A DNA stretch of 64,000 nt, from the NCBI GenBank assembly GCA_944325175.1, contig CALUYZ010000004.1, forward strand, positions 62,001 through 126,000. Direction: 5' to 3'. Below are positions 1 to 13,068 of this stretch, in pieces. The stretch's first letter is position 1; each line of letters begins with the position of its first letter. The notes below the pieces were generated by a model that saw nothing but the letters and a program-made list of their open reading frames with translations, had not been told where the DNA came from and did no database searches. Source of the DNA: Candidatus Gastranaerophilales bacterium (GTDB lineage: Bacteria > Cyanobacteriota > Vampirovibrionia > Gastranaerophilales > Gastranaerophilaceae). A program made the translations under genes and the position numbers.

Positions 1-1
1 T

Positions 2-199
2 TCAAAAGCCACAGATATTGTGCTGGATCCTTTTGGCGGTTCCGGTTCAACTTTGCTTGCCTGCCAGAGAGCCAAACGAAAAGCCAGAATTATTGAGATA
101 TCTCCACATTATTGTGACTTGATAATTCATCGTTTTGAAGAACTTACCGGTATAAAAGCAGAATTTGTTATAAATATTTCAGAACAGAAAGAGGTTTAA
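2..199 (+). CDS. DNA methyltransferase, C-terminal fragment (cut by window edge)
   Basis: An open frame enters from the left edge and stops at 197-199, giving the last 65 residues of a protein. It contains DPFGGSGST, the SAM-binding DPFxGSGT motif of site-specific adenine/cytosine-N4 DNA methyltransferases, followed by the family's usual tail (RAKRKARIIEI, then HYCDLIIHRF). The next gene starts one base later, so it belongs to the same transcript as the DUF5681, DUF2924 and recombinase genes. Such methyltransferases are common cargo of phages and integrative elements. The target sequence, and whether a ParB-like domain precedes it, cannot be seen from this fragment. Confidence 0.85.
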   Translation, partial: SKATDIVLDPFGGSGSTLLACQRAKRKARIIEISPHYCDLIIHRFEELTGIKAEFVINISEQKEV

Positions 200-200
200 G

Positions 201-413
201 ATGAAAAAGAAAAATTATCAAAAGGAAATAATAAACGAGCTTATAGATTTTTACAGAAACAGAATCAGGTTTATAAAATTAGCCAAAAAAATTGATAAAC
301 AGCAATATGGTGCTATTTCGACATTCTGTGATTTAGATTTTATTGAAAATGCTTACAAACAAGAGATACAGTTATTAAAAGAGGTAAAGAAATATGAAAA
401 AAAAGGAAACTAA
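201..413 (+). CDS. Small hypothetical protein of the mobile-element operon
   Basis: A 70-residue, lysine-rich and apparently soluble protein, starting one base after the methyltransferase stop. AGAAAGAGG lies about 10 bases before the ATG as a possible ribosome-binding site within the preceding gene. Its end overlaps the next gene by 20 bp, typical of tightly coupled phage or integrative-element genes. I recognise no motif. The helical, charged composition would suit a small accessory or DNA-associated protein, but no function is assigned. Confidence 0.6.
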   Translation: MKKKNYQKEIINELIDFYRNRIRFIKLAKKIDKQQYGAISTFCDLDFIENAYKQEIQLLKEVKKYEKKGN

Positions 414-1002
414 AAAAAGAAACAATTGGAAACAAGCATATAATAGATTGGTAAAAATGTCAGAAGAATGTTATTTACCATGTATATTATTCTTGATACA
501 AGATATATTTCCAATGATGAACGAACAAATGTTTAACTACGTGTGCCGTAACTATTCTTTAAAGCCGGAAATAATTTTAGAATTTGCAAGTAAATTAGGG
601 ATAAAATTAAATTTTACAAAGGAAGGGAAGCCGGAATCTAAAACTGAAGACCCGCAACCCGAAGATATTGATCCTGACTATAAGGTAGGCTATAAACATC
701 CGCCTAAACATACCCGGTTTCAAAAAGGCAACAAAGGTAATCCTAAAGGCAGAAAGTCTAAGAAAGGTAGACCTATTATGGAATTGCTCTTAGAAGAACT
801 GGATAAGAAAATTCGTATTAATGAAGGTGGCGAAACTAAAGAAATCTATAAAAGGGAAGTAATAACTAAAGATTTGTCCAAATCTCTAATATTAGGAAAA
901 CCGATTCCAAGAAATAACCTAGATTTAATAAATCATTTAGATCGATATGCCGCAAGAAAAGAGGTTGTTGAAAAAATCTTTAATGATGAGAATAATTGTT
1001 GA
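394..1002 (+). CDS. DUF5681 domain protein
   Basis: A 202-residue protein. Around residues 95-130 it has a basic glycine/lysine block (VGYKHPPKHTRFQKGNKGNP, then KGRKSKKGRP) that matches the hallmark of DUF5681, a family found mostly in phages and integrative elements of proteobacteria, often beside methyltransferases and packaging or recombination genes. The N-terminal 60 residues are helical and unrecognised. It overlaps the previous gene by 20 bp and precedes the DUF2924/recombinase pair. The molecular function of DUF5681 is unknown; DNA binding is a guess from the basic block. Confidence 0.75.
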   Translation: MKKKETKKRNNWKQAYNRLVKMSEECYLPCILFLIQDIFPMMNEQMFNYVCRNYSLKPEIILEFASKLGIKLNFTKEGKPESKTEDPQPEDIDPDYKVGYKHPPKHTRFQKGNKGNPKGRKSKKGRPIMELLLEELDKKIRINEGGETKEIYKREVITKDLSKSLILGKPIPRNNLDLINHLDRYAARKEVVEKIFNDENNC

Positions 1003-1019
1003 TTCTATGTATCTTTTGA

Positions 1020-1472
1020 GTGAGTAATATTCTCAAAGGATTAACATTTATGCTTGCAAATTACGACAAATACACAAAAAAGGAGCTTACTGAACTTTAT
1101 GAGAAAGAGTTCGGGAAAGCTCCTTTTTCATATCTAAGCAGAAGCTTTTTGACAAAATATCTTATTTATAAAGAACAAGCCGGCAAATACGGAGATTTGA
1201 CCGCATCAACGCAAAAACAGCTAAACAAACTTATTCAGGTATATCAATTAAATAAAAATATAATGGATAAAGATATTAAAAAGACAAAGAATTTCTATAT
1301 ACAGTCAGGCACAAAACTTGTACGGGAATTTAAAGGAGAACGCTATGAGGTAATTGCGTTGGATAAAGGTTTTGAATTTAACGGAAAAATATACAAAAGC
1401 CTTTCTGCAATAGCAAATGAAATCACAGGCTCAAGATGGAACGGTAAAATATTTTTCGGAGTAAAAAAATGA
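1020..1472 (+). CDS. DUF2924 family protein, recombinase partner
   Basis: A protein of 150 residues from a GTG at 1020, or about 140 from an ATG at 1050; the latter begins MLANYDKYTKKEL. The C-terminal half (LVREFKGERYEVIAL, then GKIYKSLSAIANEITGSRW) has the DUF2924 pattern: a short beta-rich module followed by a helix. DUF2924 genes are commonly found directly upstream of large serine recombinases in alphaproteobacterial elements, and here the stop overlaps the recombinase ATG by 4 bp. A role as recombinase accessory or DNA-binding factor is inferred from that coupling only. Confidence 0.75.
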   Translation: MSNILKGLTFMLANYDKYTKKELTELYEKEFGKAPFSYLSRSFLTKYLIYKEQAGKYGDLTASTQKQLNKLIQVYQLNKNIMDKDIKKTKNFYIQSGTKLVREFKGERYEVIALDKGFEFNGKIYKSLSAIANEITGSRWNGKIFFGVKK

Positions 1473-3115
1473 AAAAATTCAGATGTGCAATCTATACCCG
1501 CAAATCAACAGAAGAAGGATTAGAACAGGATTTTAACTCTCTGGATGCCCAAAGAGAAGCCTGCGAGGCTTATATAAAATCCCAGCAGCACGAAGGCTGG
1601 ATTTTGATAGAAAAACAATACAACGATGGTGGATTTTCCGGCGGAAATTTAGACAGACCGGCATTAAAAGAACTGTTTAATGATATAAAAAATGACAGAA
1701 TAGATATTGTAGTTGTCTATAAAGTTGACAGACTAACCCGTTCCCTGCTTGACTTTGCAAAAATTGTCGAACTTTTTGATGCCCACAGTGCAAGTTTTGT
1801 TTCCGTAACACAAAATTTTAATACAACAACATCTATGGGCAGGCTGACATTAAATATACTGCTTTCTTTTGCCCAATTTGAAAGAGAAGTAACAGGAGAA
1901 AGGATTCGTGATAAAATTGCAGCATCAAAAAAAAAGGGAATGTGGATGGGGGGTCGTGTTCCGATAGGATACGAAAGAAAGGATAAAAAACTGATAATAG
2001 AAACAAGCGGTGCCACAAAAGTAAAAAAAATATTTGAAAAATATATTGAATTAAAGAGTGTTCCTAAACTGAAAACTTATCTTGCCGGTGAAAATATCAG
2101 AACAAATACAGGAAAAAACTTTGATAAAGGGCAGTTGTACCATATTCTGCAAAACAAAACTTACACAGGGAAAATTGTGCATAAAAACAATGTTTATGAA
2201 GGAGAACATGCTGCAATTATTGAAGAAAATCTGTTTAATCTTGCCCAAGATTTACTACAGGCAAATAAAGTTGATGAAAGCCGAAAACATAATGCCTCAA
2301 ACTCACTGCTTGCAGGTAAAATATATGATGATAAAAATAATCGGATGACGCCGAGTTACAGTAAAACAAGAAATAAAAAATACAGGTATTATGTTAGCCA
2401 GCCGGTCTTAAAATTCGACAAAACAAAAGCCGGTTCTGTATCAAAACTTCCTGCTGAAGAAACAGAAAAATTTGTAACAGATGAGATAAGAAGCTATTTT
2501 TTTGATACAAAACAGATTCAGAATTATATTGCAGAACTCTCTGTTTTAGAGCAAAACCGGATTTTAGAAGCAGTTAAATCCGGAAAATTTGATAATTATG
2601 CTCTTGTACGTTCTGTTTTAGAAACGCTAACTGTTTCAAGAGAATGGACAGAAATGATTTTATCCAAAATCAGGATTAAAAAATTTCTTTATGATTTAGG
2701 TGGAAATATTTGCACAACTTCAGATTTCAATGAACAAGCGGAAGATTATCTGACAATAAAACGGGATATAAGAATAAAGACAGGCACTTCTAAAGGCAAC
2801 AATACTTTGATAATCCGAAATGATAAAGCCGAACCACCTCATATAAACGAAACACTTATAAAAGCGATAGTTAAAAGCTTTTACTGGCATAAACTGTTGT
2901 TGGAAGGCAAAGTTAAAAATACAAAGGATATTCAGAAACTTGAGAACCTGAAAGACAACAGTTATATAAAACAGGTTTTAAATCTGAGATTTCTCTCTCC
3001 CCGAATTATTGAAGCTATATTAAACGGTACACAACCACATGAACTAACCGTAACAAAACTGTTTAATATAAAGACTTTAAACTGGAAAGAACAGGAAGAA
3101 TTAATAATGCTTTAA
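1469..3115 (+). CDS. Large serine recombinase / site-specific integrase
   Basis: A 548-residue large serine recombinase. The resolvase domain covers residues 1-150, with YTRKS placing the catalytic Ser at residue 13, then SLDAQREAC, KVDRLTRS and the FEREVTGERIRDK helix. The Recombinase domain follows (VPIGYERKD, then LQNKTYTGKIVHKN). The usual zinc-ribbon cysteines are absent around residues 280-310, as in DUF2924-linked homologues. Such enzymes integrate or excise elements at short att sites without needing host ligation. It is translationally coupled to DUF2924. The 350 bp after it carry no gene and are the obvious place to look for an attachment or binding site. Confidence 0.93.
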   Translation: MKKFRCAIYTRKSTEEGLEQDFNSLDAQREACEAYIKSQQHEGWILIEKQYNDGGFSGGNLDRPALKELFNDIKNDRIDIVVVYKVDRLTRSLLDFAKIVELFDAHSASFVSVTQNFNTTTSMGRLTLNILLSFAQFEREVTGERIRDKIAASKKKGMWMGGRVPIGYERKDKKLIIETSGATKVKKIFEKYIELKSVPKLKTYLAGENIRTNTGKNFDKGQLYHILQNKTYTGKIVHKNNVYEGEHAAIIEENLFNLAQDLLQANKVDESRKHNASNSLLAGKIYDDKNNRMTPSYSKTRNKKYRYYVSQPVLKFDKTKAGSVSKLPAEETEKFVTDEIRSYFFDTKQIQNYIAELSVLEQNRILEAVKSGKFDNYALVRSVLETLTVSREWTEMILSKIRIKKFLYDLGGNICTTSDFNEQAEDYLTIKRDIRIKTGTSKGNNTLIIRNDKAEPPHINETLIKAIVKSFYWHKLLLEGKVKNTKDIQKLENLKDNSYIKQVLNLRFLSPRIIEAILNGTQPHELTVTKLFNIKTLNWKEQEELIML

Positions 3116-3469
3116 CCGGATTATGCGGAAAACCCTATTTATATATACCCGCCATTTTTATGAATTTCAATAAATACATAAATTATCATTTATCGGATAA
3201 TTATTTTAATTGTCATTTATTATTGCAGTGAGCGAATTTTAGGACAAAATCCCCAAATTCCCATTAACTTCCCATTAGCGTGTTTAAAATTCCCATTTCT
3301 TACTTTTGGATATTTGGCTAAACTTCTTGCTATATCTGCATTTAAGATAATTCGTAGGCATTTGTATTTTAGCACTTTTTTTATTTTTTGCAAGCGTAAA
3401 ATATAAAGCCTTTACTATAAGATGCTTAATTTAACTCTATACATTAAAAATTAAAGTTTTGTTACAAGC
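3116..3469. other. Gene-free stretch between recombinase and AAA+ operon
   Basis: About 350 bp without a credible gene, lying between the 3' ends of two convergent operons. It holds AT-rich near-repeats (ATTATCATTTATC and AATTGTCATTTATT near 3183-3222) and three TTCCCATT direct repeats (listed separately). Flanking a large serine recombinase, it is a candidate att or recombinase-accessory region. No clear strong terminator hairpin was seen. Confidence 0.5.
3258..3297. repeat. Three phased TTCCCATT direct repeats
   Basis: TTCCCATT occurs at 3258-3265, 3269-3276 and 3290-3297. The start-to-start distances are 11 and 21 bp, about one and two turns of the DNA helix, as expected for protein-binding iterons. 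They lie 140-180 bp after the recombinase stop. Binding by the recombinase, DUF2924 or an excision factor is conjecture. Confidence 0.5.
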
Positions 3470-5005
3470 TTAAAAATTGGCAATCATTTTTTCTTCAATG
3501 ATTTTTTTTATATCTCTTAAATTATTAGTATTTCTATTATTTATTTCAGTAATTAAATTTTTCTTAAATTCATCATATAATACATAACCAGGATTGATTG
3601 ATTGTAGATATTTACAAAAGTGATTTATTTGATAGTTGATATATTCATTTAATTCATAAGGCTTTAGCTCTTCAAATTGACATATGAAATCAATTCTAGA
3701 TTGTAGTTCTGGTGGGATCCGCTGTTTAAATTCTTTTTCAGTTCGTATATTAGAAGTAAATATTAAAACATATCCTTCTAAGTTATATTCTCTAGAAATA
3801 CTATCGGTATAACCACCATCTTCCAATAATTCCAAAAAAAAATCAAATACTGGTCTATTTGCTTTTTCAAATTCATCAAAAACAATTACTCCAGTTTTAT
3901 TTTTTTCTAATTTTCTACAAAGCTCACCACCATCACAGCCGACATATCCATTCGGACTGCCAATTAGGTTGTTTAATGAATGATCACTAGAATAGTTGCC
4001 AAAATTTATCTTAATTAATTTAGATTTCTTAGATAAAAATTTACTACACAATCTACCAACTTCCGTTTTACCTAACCCAGATTCGCCAAATAAAAAAACA
4101 GAAAAAACTTTTCTTTTTTTTATAGTGAATAATTTACGAAAATTAGTTAATCTTTTAATGAATTCCGTTTTAAAATTTTGATGTCCTATTAAATTTTGAC
4201 AAAACTCTTCTTGAAATTTTCTAAAACATTCATCACTTAAATTTGTAATTAAACTCACTTCTGTATCTTTTGCCGGTTCTTCTAATGTTTCATTTAAATT
4301 TAAATCAGGGAAGCATGAATTAATATTTTGATAATTGTCAAAATATAGAGGCATATTTTTTAAGACATCCTCTTTATGTATATCTTGCACAATACAAATG
4401 ATATTTTCGTTATGATCCAAAATTTGTTCTAAGTTAAACAATATATGCATATTGTTAGACGTTGCAATTTTAATAACTGAAGTTAAATCAATTATAAAAG
4501 TTTCATTTACTTTTATTGAATTTTTCAGAGCTTGCATCTTAGAAAAATTCAAATAACTCAAATTATTGTCTTGAGCATATTTTATAATTTGTTCCACATT
4601 TTTAATATCTTGATATGTATATAATGTTTTACGTTCCATAATATAATTTGTTTTTATGTTATCTTTGCTTTCAAATTCACTATCAAATAACGGTCGTGTT
4701 TCGACAAAAATAAAAGGAAATTTATCTAAACAATAGTTGCCCAGCTCTTCTTTTACTATAAAAATTTGATTTTCAGGGTTCGCATATTCAAATATTTCAT
4801 GTAAATAATAGATATCAGCTTCATTTCTTTGTGTCAAATATATAACGGCAGACAAGTCTATAACTATGTTTTCATAGTACTTTAATAAGTCTTTTATTTC
4901 ATCATAATTAAATCTATGAAAATTAAATTTTTCTTTTGATTTTTTTTCATGATACTTATCAAATTCTTCTTTGTTTCTATATGTGTATAAAACTAATTTT
5001 GTCAT
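3470..5005 (-). CDS. AAA+ ATPase, ClpB-D2-like, with duplicated unknown N-terminal domain
   Basis: A 511-residue protein. The C-terminal half is an AAA+ module of the ClpA/ClpB second-domain type: Walker A GESGLGKT at about 307-314, a pore loop GSPNGYVGCDGG at 349-360, Walker B VIVFDEFEKA at about 373-382, sensor-1 TSN at 418-420, an arginine-finger-like QSRIDF, and a sensor-2 NNLRDI at 494-499. The N-terminal half (about 3-222) is an internal duplication: LYTY at 6-9 and 128-131, and IDLSAVI/IDLTSVI at 49-55 and 172-178. It lacks Clp N and M domains. It is co-transcribed, 1 bp apart, behind an unrecognised protein. A threading or remodelling motor in a defence or mobile-element system is inferred. 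Confidence 0.8.
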   Translation of the reverse strand: MTKLVLYTYRNKEEFDKYHEKKSKEKFNFHRFNYDEIKDLLKYYENIVIDLSAVIYLTQRNEADIYYLHEIFEYANPENQIFIVKEELGNYCLDKFPFIFVETRPLFDSEFESKDNIKTNYIMERKTLYTYQDIKNVEQIIKYAQDNNLSYLNFSKMQALKNSIKVNETFIIDLTSVIKIATSNNMHILFNLEQILDHNENIICIVQDIHKEDVLKNMPLYFDNYQNINSCFPDLNLNETLEEPAKDTEVSLITNLSDECFRKFQEEFCQNLIGHQNFKTEFIKRLTNFRKLFTIKKRKVFSVFLFGESGLGKTEVGRLCSKFLSKKSKLIKINFGNYSSDHSLNNLIGSPNGYVGCDGGELCRKLEKNKTGVIVFDEFEKANRPVFDFFLELLEDGGYTDSISREYNLEGYVLIFTSNIRTEKEFKQRIPPELQSRIDFICQFEELKPYELNEYINYQINHFCKYLQSINPGYVLYDEFKKNLITEINNRNTNNLRDIKKIIEEKMIANF

Positions 5006-5006
5006 A

Positions 5007-5909
5007 TTATTTTTTCCAGAACCAGCCTTTAAATTTGCTTAACCAACCCCAACACTTTTTTATAGGTTTACCTTTTTGATAATATACATCTTGAATAATT
5101 GCAATTAAATCGATATAGTAATATTTTTCTTTAATATTTTTATTATCTTTAGATTTTATCTCTATTGAAGAACTTTTTATTATTTTTCCTTGAGTGTCCG
5201 TTTTTGCACCTATTTCAGTTAAATAGTTGAATGTGTTCATATTAATAGTTTCTTCATCAACTAGACTTTTATAAATTCCGATAATAGAAACTTTACCTAT
5301 CAACAAATCATTTATACTGTATTTATTTTCAAATTCGGATTGCAGATCCAGCGGAATCTTTATTATTATTTTTTCTCCACTATTAAGTTTTGCGTATAAT
5401 AAATATGCATAGTCTTGTAACATTGATGATACAATATTGCTTATTTGAATACCCTCAACATTCATCCCTTTAAGAGTATCTCCCTTTAGAACAATTATTT
5501 GTCTTAGGTTTTCTTCATTCAATATTTGCAATTGAATTTCATCTATTTTTACAAGTTGCCCTTCCTTAATGTCGTTACAACTAGTAACTTTAATGCATTT
5601 ATTGATTATTTTATCCAACAATCTAGATTTTGTTGTTTTAACTTCAAATGTTTCTATTATTTTAGACACAGCATTTTGAACTGATGTTTTAGACTGATTT
5701 ATTGATGCACTTGCTTGTGCCAAATAACTTAATTTACCGTCTAAAGTTGTTGTTTTAGTATTAGAGAATTCATTTGTTCTTTCTTTTATCCTTGAACTAA
5801 TAACTTCATTGTCTATCATCATTGAAATTTCATAAGTTTTTAGAAAATTCAAATAATAAATATTAAAAGATTCGGCCTGAAGTTCAATTGATTCATTAAT
5901 CTTTTTCAT
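5007..5909 (-). CDS. Unrecognised protein, first gene of AAA+ operon (weak DUF6414-like impression)
   Basis: About 300 residues from the ATG at 5909 (MKKINESIEL). The frame stays open to an ATG at 5969, but that extension translates promoter-like sequence (TATAAT at 5916-5921) and has no ribosome-binding site, so I prefer 5909. From there no membrane segment is evident. The layout (an opening YYLNFLK strand, a Lys/Asn/Thr-rich linker with SASINQSKT, then alternating strands and helices ending in a KCWGWLSKFKGWFWKK tail) faintly recalls DUF6414, but I cannot confirm it. The aromatic, basic C-terminus could touch membranes. Its stop lies one base before the ATPase start, so the two probably work together. 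Confidence 0.6.
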   Translation of the reverse strand: MKKINESIELQAESFNIYYLNFLKTYEISMMIDNEVISSRIKERTNEFSNTKTTTLDGKLSYLAQASASINQSKTSVQNAVSKIIETFEVKTTKSRLLDKIINKCIKVTSCNDIKEGQLVKIDEIQLQILNEENLRQIIVLKGDTLKGMNVEGIQISNIVSSMLQDYAYLLYAKLNSGEKIIIKIPLDLQSEFENKYSINDLLIGKVSIIGIYKSLVDEETINMNTFNYLTEIGAKTDTQGKIIKSSSIEIKSKDNKNIKEKYYYIDLIAIIQDVYYQKGKPIKKCWGWLSKFKGWFWKK

Positions 5910-5915
5910 GTTGCA

Positions 5916-5921
5916 ATTATA
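5916..5921 (-). promoter_or_regulatory. -10 box of the AAA+ operon
   Basis: On the minus strand TATAAT is followed by six bases and then the ATG at 5909. No Shine-Dalgarno sequence fits between them, so the message may be leaderless. The preceding context (TTTTGTTG) is nearly identical to that before apeC at 19192. A -35 match is weak. Confidence 0.5.
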
Positions 5922-5973
5922 CAACAAAATAATAGAGAATGATGCTATCTGGACTACCAGCACCACCATTTAT

Positions 5974-6001
5974 AAAAAGAGACCAATTAGGGTCTCTTTT
6001 T
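5974..6001. terminator. Bidirectional terminator hairpin
   Basis: AAAAAGAGACC and GGTCTCTTTTT pair perfectly around a 6-base loop, with U-runs usable in either direction. It lies upstream of the leftward AAA+ operon and upstream of the rightward 6062 gene, so it insulates both. No recognisable complete gene ends just before it, which suggests it is left over from a gene displaced at this junction. Confidence 0.75.
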
Positions 6002-6027
6002 TAATGTTAAATTTTTTCTCATTTCTT

Positions 6028-6055
6028 TTGACATTTAATTTGTATTAAATATTAT
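6028..6055 (+). promoter_or_regulatory. Sigma-70 promoter for the 6062 gene
   Basis: TTGACA at 6028-6033, a 16-bp spacer, then TATTAT at 6050-6055. The ATG is at 6062, only six bases after the -10 box and without a ribosome-binding site. This is the clearest example in the window of a promoter that predicts a leaderless transcript. Confidence 0.7.
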
Positions 6056-6061
6056 TATTTT

Positions 6062-7003
6062 ATGGACACGTGGCTTTTAAAAACATTCAGGTTGGAGAGG
6101 TATATTTTTGCTGTTTTGATGGCGCTTTCTATGGTTTTACTTGCTGAGGTTAGCGGTGAAAGGGAAATTATTTTTCCTGAAATTTGTGCGCTTACTATTG
6201 GTGCTTGGATTTCGGAACAGCAGCCTTGGAAGGTAAATAAAAGAAGAATATTTTTCTTGATGTCGGCTGCTGCATTGTTTGGGGTTTTAGTTGTAAGATT
6301 TTTGCAGATTCCTTTAATTTTTCAGGTTTGTGTTTGTTTTGCTTTTGCGGGGTTAATTTTAACTCTTTTTAAAACAAATTTTATTCCTATAATTTCAGCT
6401 TGCATTTTGCCTGTTTATCTTAGAACTACAAGTTTTATATACCCTGTTTCGGTTGTAATAATGGCACTATTTATAATTTTTGCGCAATGGGTAATGGAAA
6501 AAGGACGTATGCGCCCTGTGAATAAATTTGAGCCGGTTAATTTTAGTTTAAAAAGTCAAATAATAAAGTGGGCTAAATTGCTTGTTGTTTTTGGCTTAAT
6601 TGCACTTATTCCATTCAGGGTTCATCAAATATATTTTTTAGCACCTCCTTTAATTGTAATGTTTTGCGAACTTTCAAACCCAAAAAGCCCCGCAAGGAAA
6701 AAACCCTTATACATTGCTTTTTTAATGGCATTTGCCGCTTTTATAGGAAGTTTTTTCAGGCTTATTTTTAATGTATATTTTAATTTGCCTTTATCTTTTT
6801 GTACATTAATTGCATGCGTAGTTTTATTTTTTGCACTAAGTAAAATAAAAATTAACTTTCCCCCCGCAGGCGCTATTTTACTAATTCCAATGATTTTAAA
6901 CAAAAATTTGCTTTTAGCTTTCCCTTTTGAAGTTTTAATCGGTTCTTTTATATTAACTTACGTTGCAATTTTTTTGTTCAAAGAAAAAGAAGAAAGTGTG
7001 TGA
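6062..7003 (+). CDS. Polytopic membrane protein, HPP-like C-terminus
   Basis: A 313-residue, very hydrophobic protein with roughly eight to ten membrane segments. After an N-terminal LLKTFRLERY block, segments run from about residue 15 to 150; a charged loop (MEKGRMRPVNKFEP) separates them from a second set. The final part reads FPPAGAILLIPMIL, resembling the HPP family signature region. The family is mostly uncharacterised; a transport role is possible. Translation probably begins directly at the 5' end of the message (see promoter). The macro-domain gene follows after 3 bp in the same operon. Confidence 0.55.
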   Translation: MDTWLLKTFRLERYIFAVLMALSMVLLAEVSGEREIIFPEICALTIGAWISEQQPWKVNKRRIFFLMSAAALFGVLVVRFLQIPLIFQVCVCFAFAGLILTLFKTNFIPIISACILPVYLRTTSFIYPVSVVIMALFIIFAQWVMEKGRMRPVNKFEPVNFSLKSQIIKWAKLLVVFGLIALIPFRVHQIYFLAPPLIVMFCELSNPKSPARKKPLYIAFLMAFAAFIGSFFRLIFNVYFNLPLSFCTLIACVVLFFALSKIKINFPPAGAILLIPMILNKNLLLAFPFEVLIGSFILTYVAIFLFKEKEESV

Positions 7004-7006
7004 CCT

Positions 7007-7507
7007 ATGCAAAAAATTGAAATTTTATCAGGCGATATTACAAAATTAAATGTTGATGCTATTGTAAATGCTGCAAATAGAACCCTTTTAGGCGGTGGTG
7101 GTGTAGATGGTGCAATTCATAGGGCAGCCGGAAAAGAACTTTTGGAAGAATGTAGAGCTTTAAATGGTTGCGAAACAGGAAAATCTAAAATAACTAAAGG
7201 ATACAATTTGCCTTCAAAGTTTGTAATTCACACAGTCGGACCTGTTTATTCAAACGGAAAAAGAAATGAAGACGAGCTTTTAAAATCTTGTTATTTGACA
7301 GCTTTAAATCTTGCCGTTCAAAATAATATTAAAACAATAGCTTTTCCTGCTATTTCTTGCGGGGTGTACCGTTTCCCGATTGATAGGGCGGCAAAAATTG
7401 CGGTTGAAACGGTTAAAAATTTTATATCCAAAAATGAACAAATAGAAAAAGTTATTTTTATTGATATAAATAAAAATGTTGTTGAAGAATATAAAAAGCT
7501 TATTTAG
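7007..7507 (+). CDS. Macro domain protein (ADP-ribose / O-acetyl-ADP-ribose hydrolase)
   Basis: A 166-residue single macro domain of the YmdB/TARG1 type. The features are [27 protein letters not shown] (Asn and glycine-rich loop at about 18-45), [15 protein letters not shown] and [14 protein letters not shown]. Family members bind ADP-ribose and remove ADP-ribose or acetyl groups from ADP-ribosylated molecules in the cytoplasm. The full length matches the family. It is in an operon with the preceding membrane protein; a functional link between them is not evident. Confidence 0.93.
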
Positions 7508-7582
7508 TTATACTTTTGTAAATAAAATTAAATACTTAGCGGTTTTTGTCGATAAATCAAATATATTAAAGGAAGGTTAAAA

Positions 7583-8623
7583 ATGTCAGACGAATTAAAT
7601 GTAAATGGTTATATTTGCGCAAGCAATAAGGTTTATGACAGTTTGAAGTCTGAAAATATATCCAAAGATAATTTAGCTAAACTTGATAAAAATTCTGACA
7701 ATAAAATTTCGGAAGACGAACTTGTGGAATTTGATGACAAAGAAGAAGAATCCGCAAGTAAAAAAACATACAGCGACAATCCGCAAATAGCATCTCTTGA
7801 ATTACAGTATGAAAAAGAGCAAGAAGATATTGTCAAATATCAAAAAAGAATTGCAGACCTTATGGTGTTAAAAAATAAAACAAGGGTGAATGTTGCAAGT
7901 GCTTCAAAAAATGAAACAAAAGAAGCTCTTATGTCAAAATTAGACAATATTCAAGGAGAAATAGACGAATATAATACAAAAATAATCTCAAGTTTAAATA
8001 ATATGGGAACCATAAGTGCAAACATCAAAAACATTCAAACACAAATTGAAAATACAAAAACATCATACACTGCCATTCAAGCAAATTCAAATGCTTCAAC
8101 TGCATCAACAAGTACAAATGCAGTTTCAAATACAGCATCTGCTTCCCTAAATGTTCAAACAGGCACAGGGCAAGAACTTATGAATGTTACAGGCGATTTA
8201 TCAATTTGTCTTGACAGAGTAGCTGAAAGCCTTAATACATCAAGGCAAGGTGCAGCAGATTATATCACAACTCTATGCAATACAATAAGCAATGGCGAAA
8301 TTAATCCAAAGGTAATTCTTTCTCAAATTTTTTCAGAATCATCCGGAATACAATCATGTTCAACCACAGCAACATCAAAATTTGTCGGCTTAGGGCAAAT
8401 GTCGGCTGTTGCAGTTGAAGAAATAAACAGGCAATTTGGAACCAACTTTACATTTAGCGATATGGATAATGCTGCCAAAAACTTAGAAGCAATGGTTTAT
8501 TTAATGACATATCAATATAGAAGGTATGATAACAATATAGCAGCAGCCATTACAGCTTATAACGTAGGGCATTATTCAGGCACTGTAAATAATTATGCCA
8601 AAAAAATTCTTTCAAGAGTTTAA
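7583..8623 (+). CDS. Transglycosylase SLT-domain protein with EF-hand and coiled coil
   Basis: A 346-residue protein with ribosome-binding site GGAAGG before the ATG. Residues 33-50 contain an EF-hand-like loop (LDKNSDNKISEDEL), 70-165 are coiled coil, and 165-195 form a Ser/Thr/Ala/Asn linker. The C-terminal 110 residues form an SLT lytic transglycosylase domain: SESSG with the catalytic Glu at about 247, GLGQM, and AAITAYNVG. The reaction would be peptidoglycan cleavage forming 1,6-anhydro-muramyl ends. There is no signal peptide, so export would need a non-Sec route, as for phage, flagellar or secretion-system muralytic proteins. Confidence 0.85.
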   Translation: MSDELNVNGYICASNKVYDSLKSENISKDNLAKLDKNSDNKISEDELVEFDDKEEESASKKTYSDNPQIASLELQYEKEQEDIVKYQKRIADLMVLKNKTRVNVASASKNETKEALMSKLDNIQGEIDEYNTKIISSLNNMGTISANIKNIQTQIENTKTSYTAIQANSNASTASTSTNAVSNTASASLNVQTGTGQELMNVTGDLSICLDRVAESLNTSRQGAADYITTLCNTISNGEINPKVILSQIFSESSGIQSCSTTATSKFVGLGQMSAVAVEEINRQFGTNFTFSDMDNAAKNLEAMVYLMTYQYRRYDNNIAAAITAYNVGHYSGTVNNYAKKILSRV

Positions 8624-8684
8624 AATCGAAATATTTACCTCTCTAAAATTTATGTGATAGCATAAAGAAAAGAGGAGACAAATT

Positions 8685-9317
8685 ATGAAGGTTTTATTGT
8701 TTAACGGCAGTTCAAACGAAAAAGGCTGCACTTATACGGCACTTTTAGAAATTTCAAATACATTAAACAAAGAAAATATTGAAACGGAAATAATTCAAGT
8801 TGGAAAAAATGCCATAAGAGATTGTATCGGATGCTCAGGCTGTAGAAAAAACGGGGGCAAATGCGTTTTTGGCGATGACATTGTAAATGATGTCATTGAA
8901 AAAGCAAAAGAAGCAGACGGCTTTATTTTTGGCTCACCTGTTTATTATGCACATCCTTCAGGCAGAATTTTATCTTTTATGGATAGAATTTTTTATGCAA
9001 ATTCAGCCGCTTTTAAATTTAAACCTGCTGCAGCGATAGTTTCTGCAAGAAGGGCCGGCACAACAGCTTCCATTGATGCAATGACAAAACATTTTACAAT
9101 TAATAATATGCCTGTCGTTTCTTCAAATTACTGGGCAATGGTTCATGGAAGGCAAAATACCCCCGATGATGTTAAGCAAGATTTAGAAGGCTTACAAATT
9201 ATGAGAACATTAGGGCAAAATATGGCTTGGCTTTTAAAATGCATTGAGCTTGGAAACAAAAACGGAATTTTTCCGCCCAATTTAGAAGATAAAATTTATA
9301 CAAACTTCATAAGATAA
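8685..9317 (+). CDS. NADPH-dependent FMN reductase / iron-sulfur flavoprotein family
   Basis: A 210-residue flavodoxin-fold protein. It has GSSNEKGCTY (the FMN phosphate loop GSxxxxG, about 8-17), a cysteine cluster CIGCSGCRKNGGKC at about 47-60, and FGSPVYYAHPSGRILSFMDR, typical of the NADPH-dependent FMN reductase/YwqN group. The cysteines may hold an iron-sulfur cluster. The likely role is reduction of flavin or quinone-like substrates in the cytoplasm. A strong GAGGAG ribosome-binding site precedes the ATG. It appears to be a single gene between the transglycosylase and dapL. Confidence 0.85.
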   Translation: MKVLLFNGSSNEKGCTYTALLEISNTLNKENIETEIIQVGKNAIRDCIGCSGCRKNGGKCVFGDDIVNDVIEKAKEADGFIFGSPVYYAHPSGRILSFMDRIFYANSAAFKFKPAAAIVSARRAGTTASIDAMTKHFTINNMPVVSSNYWAMVHGRQNTPDDVKQDLEGLQIMRTLGQNMAWLLKCIELGNKNGIFPPNLEDKIYTNFIR

Positions 9318-9375
9318 GCTTTATAAAAATTTTTTCTTCAATTATAATTTTTATGTAATTAACAAAGGAAACAAT

Positions 9376-10557
9376 ATGAATATCAACGAAAATTATTTGA
9401 ATTTGGAAGAAAGCTACCTTTTTTCAACCGTAGCAAAAAAGGTGAACGAATTTATTCAAAATAATCCGGATAAAAAAGTGATAAGGCTTGGTATTGGCGA
9501 TGTTACGCTTCCTTTATGTAAAGCAGTAATTGAAGCTATGCACAATGCTGTAGATGAAATGGCAAAAAAAGAAACATTTAGAGGATATGGTCCTGAACAA
9601 GGGTATGACTTTTTAAGAGAAAAAGTTCAAGCTTATTATAAAAAAAGAAATGTTGAACTTGAACTTGATGAAATTTTTATTTCAGACGGTGCTAAAAGTG
9701 ATGTAGGAAACATTTTAGACATTTTTTCAAAAGATAATGTCATTTTAGTTCCGGACCCTGTTTATCCTGTTTATGTAGACACAAACATAATGGCGGGCAG
9801 AAAAGTTATTTTTGCAGATGCAAACAAAGAAAACGGCTTTTTGCCGTTGCCTGATAGTAACCAAAAAGCAGACATCATCTATATTTGCTCTCCAAACAAC
9901 CCGACAGGGGCAGTATATAACAAAGAGCAATTAAAAAAATGGGTTGATTATGCAATTTCAAACAATGCAATCATCTTATTTGACGCTGCTTATGAATGTT
10001 TTGTTTCTGATGAAAAACTTCCAAGAAGCATTTTTGAGATTGAAGGCGCTAAAAATTGTGCAATAGAATTTTGTTCTTTATCAAAAACTGCGGGCTTTAC
10101 GGGCACAAGATGCGGTTATACGATTGTTCCAAAACTTTTGGGCAAATTAAATAAATTCTGGCTAAGACGCCAAACAACAAAATTTAACGGTGTTCCATAT
10201 ATTATTCAAAGGGGCGCTGAAGCCGTGTTTACGGAAAAAGGGCTTGATGAAATTAAAGAAAACATTAATTATTACAAAGAAAATGCAAAAGTTATTTCTG
10301 AAACACTGGATAGGTGCAATATCTGGCATGTGGGCGGTAAACATTCGCCTTATATCTGGTTAAAATGTCCAAACAATATGAAATCTTGGGAATTTTTTGA
10401 TCTTCTTCTTGAAAAAATTCAAGTGGTGGGAACCCCTGGCTCAGGCTTTGGTAAAAACGGCGAAGGCTTTTTCAGATTAACTTCATTCGGTTCAAAAGAA
10501 AATACAATCGAAGCTATGAAAAGATTTGAAGAAGCGTTTAAACCTGTTAATGTATAA
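9376..10557 (+). CDS. dapL: LL-diaminopimelate aminotransferase
   Basis: A 393-residue fold-type I PLP aminotransferase of the DapL family. It contains RLGIGDVTLPL, RGYGPEQGY (substrate-specific loop), ICSPNNPTGAVY, and the PLP lysine in SLSKTAGFTGTRCG near residue 237; length and motifs match cyanobacterial and plant DapL. It converts tetrahydrodipicolinate and glutamate directly to LL-diaminopimelate, bypassing acylated intermediates. The partners dapF (61.1 kb) and lysA (48.8 kb) are in this window but not adjacent. TATAAT and AAAGGA precede the start, and a strong terminator follows. Confidence 0.95.
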   Translation: MNINENYLNLEESYLFSTVAKKVNEFIQNNPDKKVIRLGIGDVTLPLCKAVIEAMHNAVDEMAKKETFRGYGPEQGYDFLREKVQAYYKKRNVELELDEIFISDGAKSDVGNILDIFSKDNVILVPDPVYPVYVDTNIMAGRKVIFADANKENGFLPLPDSNQKADIIYICSPNNPTGAVYNKEQLKKWVDYAISNNAIILFDAAYECFVSDEKLPRSIFEIEGAKNCAIEFCSLSKTAGFTGTRCGYTIVPKLLGKLNKFWLRRQTTKFNGVPYIIQRGAEAVFTEKGLDEIKENINYYKENAKVISETLDRCNIWHVGGKHSPYIWLKCPNNMKSWEFFDLLLEKIQVVGTPGSGFGKNGEGFFRLTSFGSKENTIEAMKRFEEAFKPVNV

Positions 10558-12645: not shown

Positions 12646-13068
12646 ATGAAAAAATCATTTTATTTATTTATGCTTATTAGTTTTATATTTCTTGGTGCAA
12701 TGCAAGCCTTTGCGCTAAATTCTTATGACAAATACGGTCAAAAAACAGGAATTTACAGAGAAACATCAACAGGAATAGATAAATACGACAAATATGGCTC
12801 AAAAACAGGAAGCTACAGAAAAACCTACTCCGGATACGATTCTTATGATAAATACGGTTCAAAAACAGGAAGTTTCAAAAAAACATCATCCGGCTATGAT
12901 GAATATGATAAATATGGTTCAAAAGTAGGCAGCTACAAAGAAACAAGCAATGGAACAGTTATCAAATACGATAAATACGGTCAAAGAACCGGTTCATTTA
13001 AAAAAGATTCAATGGGAAATATAACAGAATATGATAAATATGGGCAAAAAATGGGAAGTTATAAGTAA
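12646..13068 (+). CDS. Secreted YDKYG-repeat protein
   Basis: A 140-residue protein with a clear Sec signal peptide (MKKSFYLFMLISFIFLGAMQ, AFA cleavage at about residue 23). The mature part is six tandem repeats of about 20 residues with the consensus YDKYGxKxGSYKxTSxG. The repeats keep Tyr, Asp, Lys and Gly at fixed positions and vary in the linkers. GGGGGG before the ATG is a strong ribosome-binding site. The mature protein is small, lacks Cys, and should lie in the periplasm or outside the cell. Similar YxxxG repeats occur in proteins of unknown function; beta-hairpin or cell-wall binding repeats are a guess. Confidence 0.8.
   Translation: MKKSFYLFMLISFIFLGAMQAFALNSYDKYGQKTGIYRETSTGIDKYDKYGSKTGSYRKTYSGYDSYDKYGSKTGSFKKTSSGYDEYDKYGSKVGSYKETSNGTVIKYDKYGQRTGSFKKDSMGNITEYDKYGQKMGSYK

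What the first reader, a model, noticed from the sequence alone, without database searches (positions are those of the whole stretch)
3470..5909. Candidate new two-gene system: unknown protein plus ClpB-D2-like AAA+ ATPase beside a serine recombinase
A self-contained leftward operon, bounded by its own promoter and a terminator, joins an unrecognised protein of about 300 residues (5007-5909) to an AAA+ ATPase with all ClpA/ClpB D2 landmarks (GESGLGKT, GSPNGYVG pore loop, FDEFEKA, TSN, NNLRDI). The ATPase lacks Clp N and M domains and a ClpP-binding loop is not evident. A sensor-plus-motor pair directly beside a large serine recombinase, a methyltransferase and DUF5681 fits the pattern of cargo defence or element-maintenance systems.
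Basis: partly seen in the sequence, partly recalled or inferred. Interest (0 to 1): 0.75.

Follow-up and report, generated by a model that had tools for sequence, protein, structure and literature searches.

The report
Prophage-borne Dodola-like defence gene pair
The two genes are a member of PDC-M37, an already catalogued but untested candidate anti-phage system distantly related to Dodola, carried at the end of a prophage in a gut cyanobacterial relative; the find is real but not a new kind of system.

Summary
Two same-strand genes lie at 3470-5005 (B, 511 aa, single-ring ClpB-D2-like AAA+) and 5007-5909 (A, 300 aa). "New system" is not right: both match PADLOC's candidate defence system PDC-M37 over their full length (B 2e-121, A 6e-80), and B is homologous to DolB of Dodola (4e-32). 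The DolA model, run over 11 genomes or records that hold relatives, hits only the A locus, in 7 of them. In 22 of 22 testable relatives B follows A directly. Neighbours of the relatives are rich in defence genes (restriction-modification, Gabija, DRT, SoFic, Thoeris); control host genes are not. The pair sits inside a ~50-kb prophage in tRNA-Ala, about 50 bp from its right end; a Gastranaerophilales relative carries A, AbiP2 and DUF1643 at the equivalent end. B keeps all threading-motor residues and lacks the ClpP-docking loop. One clade, including this pair, has a duplicated N-domain in B and a tryptophan/lysine-rich tail on A. Function and mechanism are inferred: most likely phage defence by a Skd3-like unfoldase working with, or on, A.

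The parts
3470..5005 (-). M37B: 511-aa AAA+ ATPase with two tandem N-terminal alpha/beta domains and one ClpB-D2-like AAA+ domain
   Evidence: PDC-M37B 2.1e-121, DolB 3.9e-32; AAA_2 1.5e-23; ClpB NBD2 / Skd3 fold, Z about 22
4682..5005 (-). M37B N-terminal domain copy 1 (aa 1-108)
   Evidence: matches copy 2: BLASTP 3e-8; profile-profile E 4.5e-14
4316..4639 (-). M37B N-terminal domain copy 2 (about aa 123-230), the copy also found in short-form homologues
   Evidence: profile match to the single N-domain of short forms, E 1.3e-14
3473..4243 (-). M37B AAA+ domain (aa 255-511): Walker A 307-314, pore loop 349-354, Walker B 377-378, sensor 1 417-419, R437, R497; no ClpP loop
5007..5909 (-). M37A: 300-aa partner protein; C-terminal part (aa about 105-275) weakly OB-fold-like
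   Evidence: PDC-M37A 5.8e-80; model pLDDT 64, OB-fold matches Z up to 7.3, a level the tool itself does not trust
5010..5060 (-). M37A C-terminal tail (aa 284-300, KKCWGWLSKFKGWFWKK), aromatic and cationic
   Evidence: such a tail is present in 8 of 8 long-form systems with a complete A and absent from all short forms
5916..5921 (-). TATAAT, candidate -10 element 6 bp before the A start codon
   Evidence: read directly; also present in L039; no matching -35
5961..5981 (+). right attachment site (attR) of the prophage: remnant of the tRNA-Ala 3' flank
   Evidence: 19 bases (5963-5981) identical to the flank of the tRNA-Ala sequence in G002; alignment
1469..3115 (+). second serine recombinase of the prophage (phage integrase family PHROG 95)
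   Evidence: Pfam Resolvase 1.4e-39; phrog_95 2.6e-95
394..1472 (+). DUF5681 (394-1002) and DUF2924 (1020-1472) proteins, prophage genes next to the recombinase
   Evidence: Pfam 3.4e-14 and 4.5e-36

Best explanation
The pair is a PDC-M37 system, a distant relative of Dodola, carried as defence cargo at the integration end of a ~50-kb tRNA-Ala prophage, where it most likely protects the lysogen against other phages. Shown: gene content, conserved pairing, motor residues, loss of the ClpP loop, defence-rich neighbourhoods, prophage location (its right end inferred from a short flank). Inferred: B forms one hexameric ring that threads proteins through its aromatic pore without passing them to a protease, as human CLPB/Skd3 does; its N-terminal domains hold or recognise A; infection lets the complex remodel A, or a phage protein bound by A, which stops phage growth or the cell. 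My estimates: defence role about 75% likely; that B acts by threading about 60%; that A is B's adaptor or direct substrate about 50%.
For: Full-length PDC-M37A/B matches. B directly downstream of A in 22 of 22 testable relatives across Bacillota, Bacteroidota and plasmids, often overlapping by 4-14 bp. DolA model finds only the A locus in 7 of 11 genomes or records (weak E-values 2e-6 to 7e-3); DolB homology strong. Dodola protects across all tested streptococcal phages, mechanism listed as unknown (PMC12322248). Neighbours: type II RM, GajB, RT/DRT, SoFic, ThsB, PDC-M49 against 1 of 48 control host proteins; L039 has A beside AbiP2 (4e-183) and near a type I restriction subunit. Patchy: 1 of 292 genomes of the phylum. 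Prophage: tRNA-Ala attL, terminase, head protein, endolysin, integrase, attR at 5961-5981. Fold of ClpB D2 and Skd3; pore loop, Walker and R-finger residues conserved; ClpP loop deleted.
Against: No experiment on any PDC-M37 member was found. The window's own A does not hit DolA at E 1, and A against one DolA gives only E 0.011. The one DolB read here lacks the pore loop, so Dodola may work differently. The A model is poor (pLDDT 64), so its fold and role are open. Whether A binds B was not tested. The neighbour control comes from one genome. attR is inferred from a short conserved flank; an empty site with the same right-hand genes was not found.
Confidence: 0.72

Rival explanations
1. A is the effector itself: in this long-form clade its tryptophan/lysine-rich tail binds or breaks the membrane, and B, with its doubled N-domain, keeps A inactive or releases it on infection (abortive infection).
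For: All 8 complete long-form A proteins end in a W/F-rich tail with net charge +1 to +7, none of the short forms does; the tail and the doubled N-domain go together, though as one event in one clade. Chromosomal Dodola delays growth (PMC12322248).
Against: Short-form systems lack the tail, so it cannot be the core mechanism of the family. Amphipathic moments are only moderately high. No toxicity data.
Confidence: 0.2
2. The pair serves the prophage itself (lysogeny control, exclusion of its own kind, or stability of the element) rather than general defence.
For: Lies inside a prophage next to a recombinase and attR. Some relatives are on plasmids with recombinase genes nearby.
Against: Relatives sit in many unrelated contexts rich in other defence genes; no PHROG family for A and no hit in phage records; no relative in viral contigs.
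Confidence: 0.15
3. B is a housekeeping Clp chaperone or ClpP partner that happens to lie beside A.
For: AAA+ domain of ClpB D2 type.
Against: Single ring, no Clp N or M domain, ClpP loop deleted; the genome has two other Clp-type proteins elsewhere; conserved pairing with A.
Confidence: 0.02

Closest known systems
PDC-M37 (PADLOC-DB candidate phage defence system; attributed to Payne et al. 2021 in PMC11811056)
   Same: Both proteins match the two-part models end to end; the 518-position B model covers the doubled N-domain; same adjacency.
   Different: Nothing clear. This is one more member, in a prophage of a Gastranaerophilales-type genome; no mechanism is known for the entry.
Dodola (DolA + DolB)
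   Same: Two genes in the same order, similar sizes, B homologous to DolB, A distantly homologous to DolA (seen through its relatives).
   Different: A of this window misses the DolA model; B here has two N-domains and the aromatic pore loop, which the one DolB read here lacks.
Human CLPB (Skd3), single-ring Hsp100 disaggregase
   Same: Single ClpB-D2-type AAA+ ring with non-Clp N-terminal domains (7ttr: Z 22.6, rmsd 2.8 over 250 residues).
   Different: The N-terminal domain is ankyrin repeats in Skd3 (PMC9934407), alpha/beta domains here; Skd3 is a mitochondrial protein-maintenance factor.
ClpB / ClpC / ClpA
   Same: The D2 AAA+ domain with its Walker, pore-loop and sensor motifs.
   Different: No D1 ring, no Clp N or M domain, no ClpP loop.

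Membership tests
PDC-M37 | protein matching PDC-M37A over its length | tested here: met
   5.8e-80, aa 13-277 of 300 to model 3-274 of 277
PDC-M37 | protein matching PDC-M37B over its length | tested here: met
   2.1e-121, aa 1-510 to model 1-510 of 518
PDC-M37 | A and B adjacent in one operon | tested here: met
   1 bp apart in the window; adjacent in 22 of 22 testable relatives
PDC-M37 | protects against phage | not testable with these tools
   needs a plaque assay; no report found
Dodola | DolB-like AAA+ protein | tested here: met
   3.9e-32; profile-profile 99% with a true DolB
Dodola | DolA protein | tested here: inconclusive
   window A: no DolA match at E 1; relatives 2e-6 to 7e-3; against one DolA E 0.011
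Hsp100 / Clp two-ring chaperones | two AAA+ domains in one chain plus Clp N-domain | tested here: not met
   one AAA+ domain at aa 255-511, other domains before it
ClpP-dependent unfoldases (ClpA, ClpC, ClpX) | ClpP-docking IGF/LGF loop | tested here: not met
   the region between sensor 1 and the arginine finger is deleted; the genome's own Clp on contig C2 has it, with LGF
Prophage cargo | between attL and attR of an element with phage genes | tested here: met
   attL at tRNA-Ala C4:17,786-17,860, terminase, head protein, endolysin, integrase; attR at window 5961-5981, inferred from a 19-base flank

The most novel reading that the evidence does not exclude
The long-form PDC-M37 clade is a mechanistically distinct defence: an infection-triggered, protease-independent unfoldase that releases or inserts a membrane-active partner whose tryptophan/lysine-rich tail is the acting part, with the duplicated N-domain of B as its lock.
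Probability: 0.1. Interest if true: 0.65.

Novelty: new member of a known kind. Interest (0 to 1): 0.33.

Why it matters
It extends a little-studied candidate defence family to a prophage of a Gastranaerophilales-type bacterium and ties PDC-M37 to Dodola, a proven system whose mechanism is still listed as unknown. The conserved pore loop and missing ClpP loop make one clear prediction (threading without degradation), and the doubled N-domain with the tailed partner gives a natural variant to test. That could help explain how Clp-like motors defend bacteria.

Tried and rejected
Phage records and viral contigs: no relative of A. Rfam on the first 14 kb: nothing above gathering score. Foldseek of A against PDB and BFVD: no match at E 0.001; only weak OB-fold resemblances. 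Sequence search of the PDB with A and with the N-domains of B: nothing of significance. Long direct repeats between the two ends of the prophage: none beyond short A+T-rich matches, as expected for a serine integrase with a short core. The B model alone is of no use for a genome survey because it rings for every ClpB. Housekeeping Clp: rejected.

Full report
The 320-aa reading of A that starts at 5969 would begin inside the attachment site; the 300-aa start has a TATAAT 6 bp before it and matches the start of the 88%-identical relative in L039.

Identity. Against PADLOC-DB, B matches PDC-M37B from end to end at 2.1e-121 and DolB at 3.9e-32; A matches PDC-M37A at 5.8e-80. Pfam and NCBIfam see only the AAA+ part of B and nothing of significance in A. 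The pair is therefore a member of a candidate defence system that is already catalogued. The only paper in the library that names PDC-M37 reports that PADLOC's PDC-M37 and Dodola were called on the same proteins in one case (PMC11811056).

Relation to Dodola. Plasmid relatives of A hit the DolA model at about 1e-5. Searching 11 whole genomes or records with the DolA model gave hits in 7, one each, at the known A locus. A true Dodola pair (L099, DolA 5e-74) compared by profiles gives 99% probability for B with DolB but only E 0.011 for A with a single DolA, in collinear positions. I therefore call the systems related but do not file this pair as Dodola. The one DolB read in full lacks the GSPxGYVG pore loop that M37B has.

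Conserved pairing. A scan of genome contigs with an alignment of A gave 20 loci, mostly Bacillota, one Bacteroidota and one Gastranaerophilales MAG; four plasmids were found as well. B follows A directly in every locus that can be judged: 4 of 4 plasmids and 18 of 18 genome loci. Two loci cannot be judged: L039 ends inside A, and L048 is nearly identical to L049 with most of B missing, by deletion or misassembly. A and B often overlap by 4 to 14 bases. In a sample of 292 genomes of the window's phylum, only this one has A, so the pair is patchy and probably moves horizontally.

Context of relatives. Proteins within 8 kb of the relatives match many defence families: type II methyltransferases and restriction enzymes, GajB of Gabija, reverse-transcriptase defence (RTasHel), SoFic, ThsB of Thoeris, PDC-M49. 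Of 48 host proteins from the window, one matches, a Pif1-type helicase. The control is from one genome only. L039, the nearest relative, has A beside an AbiP2 reverse transcriptase (4e-183), a DUF1643-like protein (my reading of its sequence) and a type I restriction subunit.

The element. Left of the window the contig continues through a phage gene set: ParB-methyltransferase-like protein, small and large terminase, major head protein, endolysin, a reverse transcriptase, and an integrase of 493 aa next to tRNA-Ala(TGC). Relatives share the host sequence up to and including that tRNA gene and then diverge. At the right end, window 5961-5981 reads CACCACCATTTATAAAAAGAG; 19 of these bases (5963-5981) equal the sequence after the tRNA-Ala of another species of the genus, and the host genes to the right are conserved in G003 from 6015 on. 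The prophage thus runs from about C4:17,860 to about C4:67,963, some 50 kb, and the pair lies at its right end, with the A start codon about 50 bp inside attR. L039 shows the same end sequence with other defence genes inserted next to it. The right-hand genes after tRNA-Ala in G006 differ from those here, so attR is a good inference, not proof.

Anatomy of B. The model (pLDDT 83) has two alpha/beta domains, aa 1-108 and 123-230, and an AAA+ domain, aa 255-511. The two N-domains are duplicates (BLASTP 3e-8, profile E 4.5e-14). The AAA+ domain matches ClpB NBD2 and human Skd3 with Z about 22 and rmsd 2.8 over 250 residues. Walker A, pore loop, Walker B, sensor 1 and the arginine finger are invariant or nearly so in 23 homologues. 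The stretch that holds the LGF loop in this genome's own ClpC-like protein is deleted. Established knowledge of Hsp100 proteins says that such a motor threads polypeptides; without the loop it should not feed ClpP.

Anatomy of A. The model is poor (pLDDT 64). Residues 105-275 resemble OB folds, with Z up to 7.3, a level the tool itself says may mean nothing. In the eight long-form systems with a complete A, including this one, A ends in a tail with 4-6 Trp/Phe and a net positive charge; no short-form A has it. Long forms make one clade (support 81/95), so tail and doubled N-domain may have arisen once, and their link is suggestive only.

Mechanism. Best supported: an anti-phage system in which a single-ring, protease-independent unfoldase (B) works with or on A. 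Steps shown: pairing, motor residues, missing ClpP loop, context. Steps inferred: hexamer, threading, binding of A by the N-domains, trigger by infection. Dodola is reported to protect against all tested streptococcal phages with unknown mechanism and to delay growth when placed in the chromosome (PMC12322248), which fits a system with a costly or harmful state.

Verdict. A real, well-conserved defence-type pair, correctly spotted, but a new member of a known candidate kind. Interest is moderate because PDC-M37 is untested, its proven relative Dodola has no known mechanism, and the long-form variant offers a testable idea.

Noticed in passing
contig C4:17,860-67,963 (window 1-5963 and loci L069, L072, L073): A ~50-kb prophage in tRNA-Ala(TGC) with two serine recombinases, a 2728-aa protein (L073:1715-9901), and a reverse transcriptase at L072:17745-18842 that looks like that of a diversity-generating retroelement.
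   Followed up: partly
L039:3757-6340: A Gastranaerophilales relative has an AbiP2 reverse transcriptase and a DUF1643-like protein between the A gene and the shared end sequence, as if this end of the element collects defence genes.
   Followed up: partly
L068 (G003:C27), 4518-9900: In a species of the same genus a Mu-like element (659-aa transposase-like protein, 241-aa ATPase) lies beside the same host gene (window 6062-7003).
   Followed up: no
L048 against L049: Two nearly identical clostridial contigs differ by loss of about 1 kb covering most of B, a natural deletion or a misassembly.
   Followed up: no
M37A C-terminal tails, window 5010-5060 and L040-L046: Trp/Phe-rich cationic tail in all long-form systems, absent from short forms.
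   Followed up: partly
L099:2265-3347: A DolB protein lacks the aromatic pore loop conserved in M37B, which suggests that Dodola's motor may not thread in the usual way.
   Followed up: no
control genome Methanocaldococcus jannaschii: The PDC-M37A model gives a hit in this archaeal control genome; not looked at.
   Followed up: no
window 12646-13068: A 140-aa secreted-looking protein made of repeats of the form YDKYGSKTGSYKKT.
   Followed up: no
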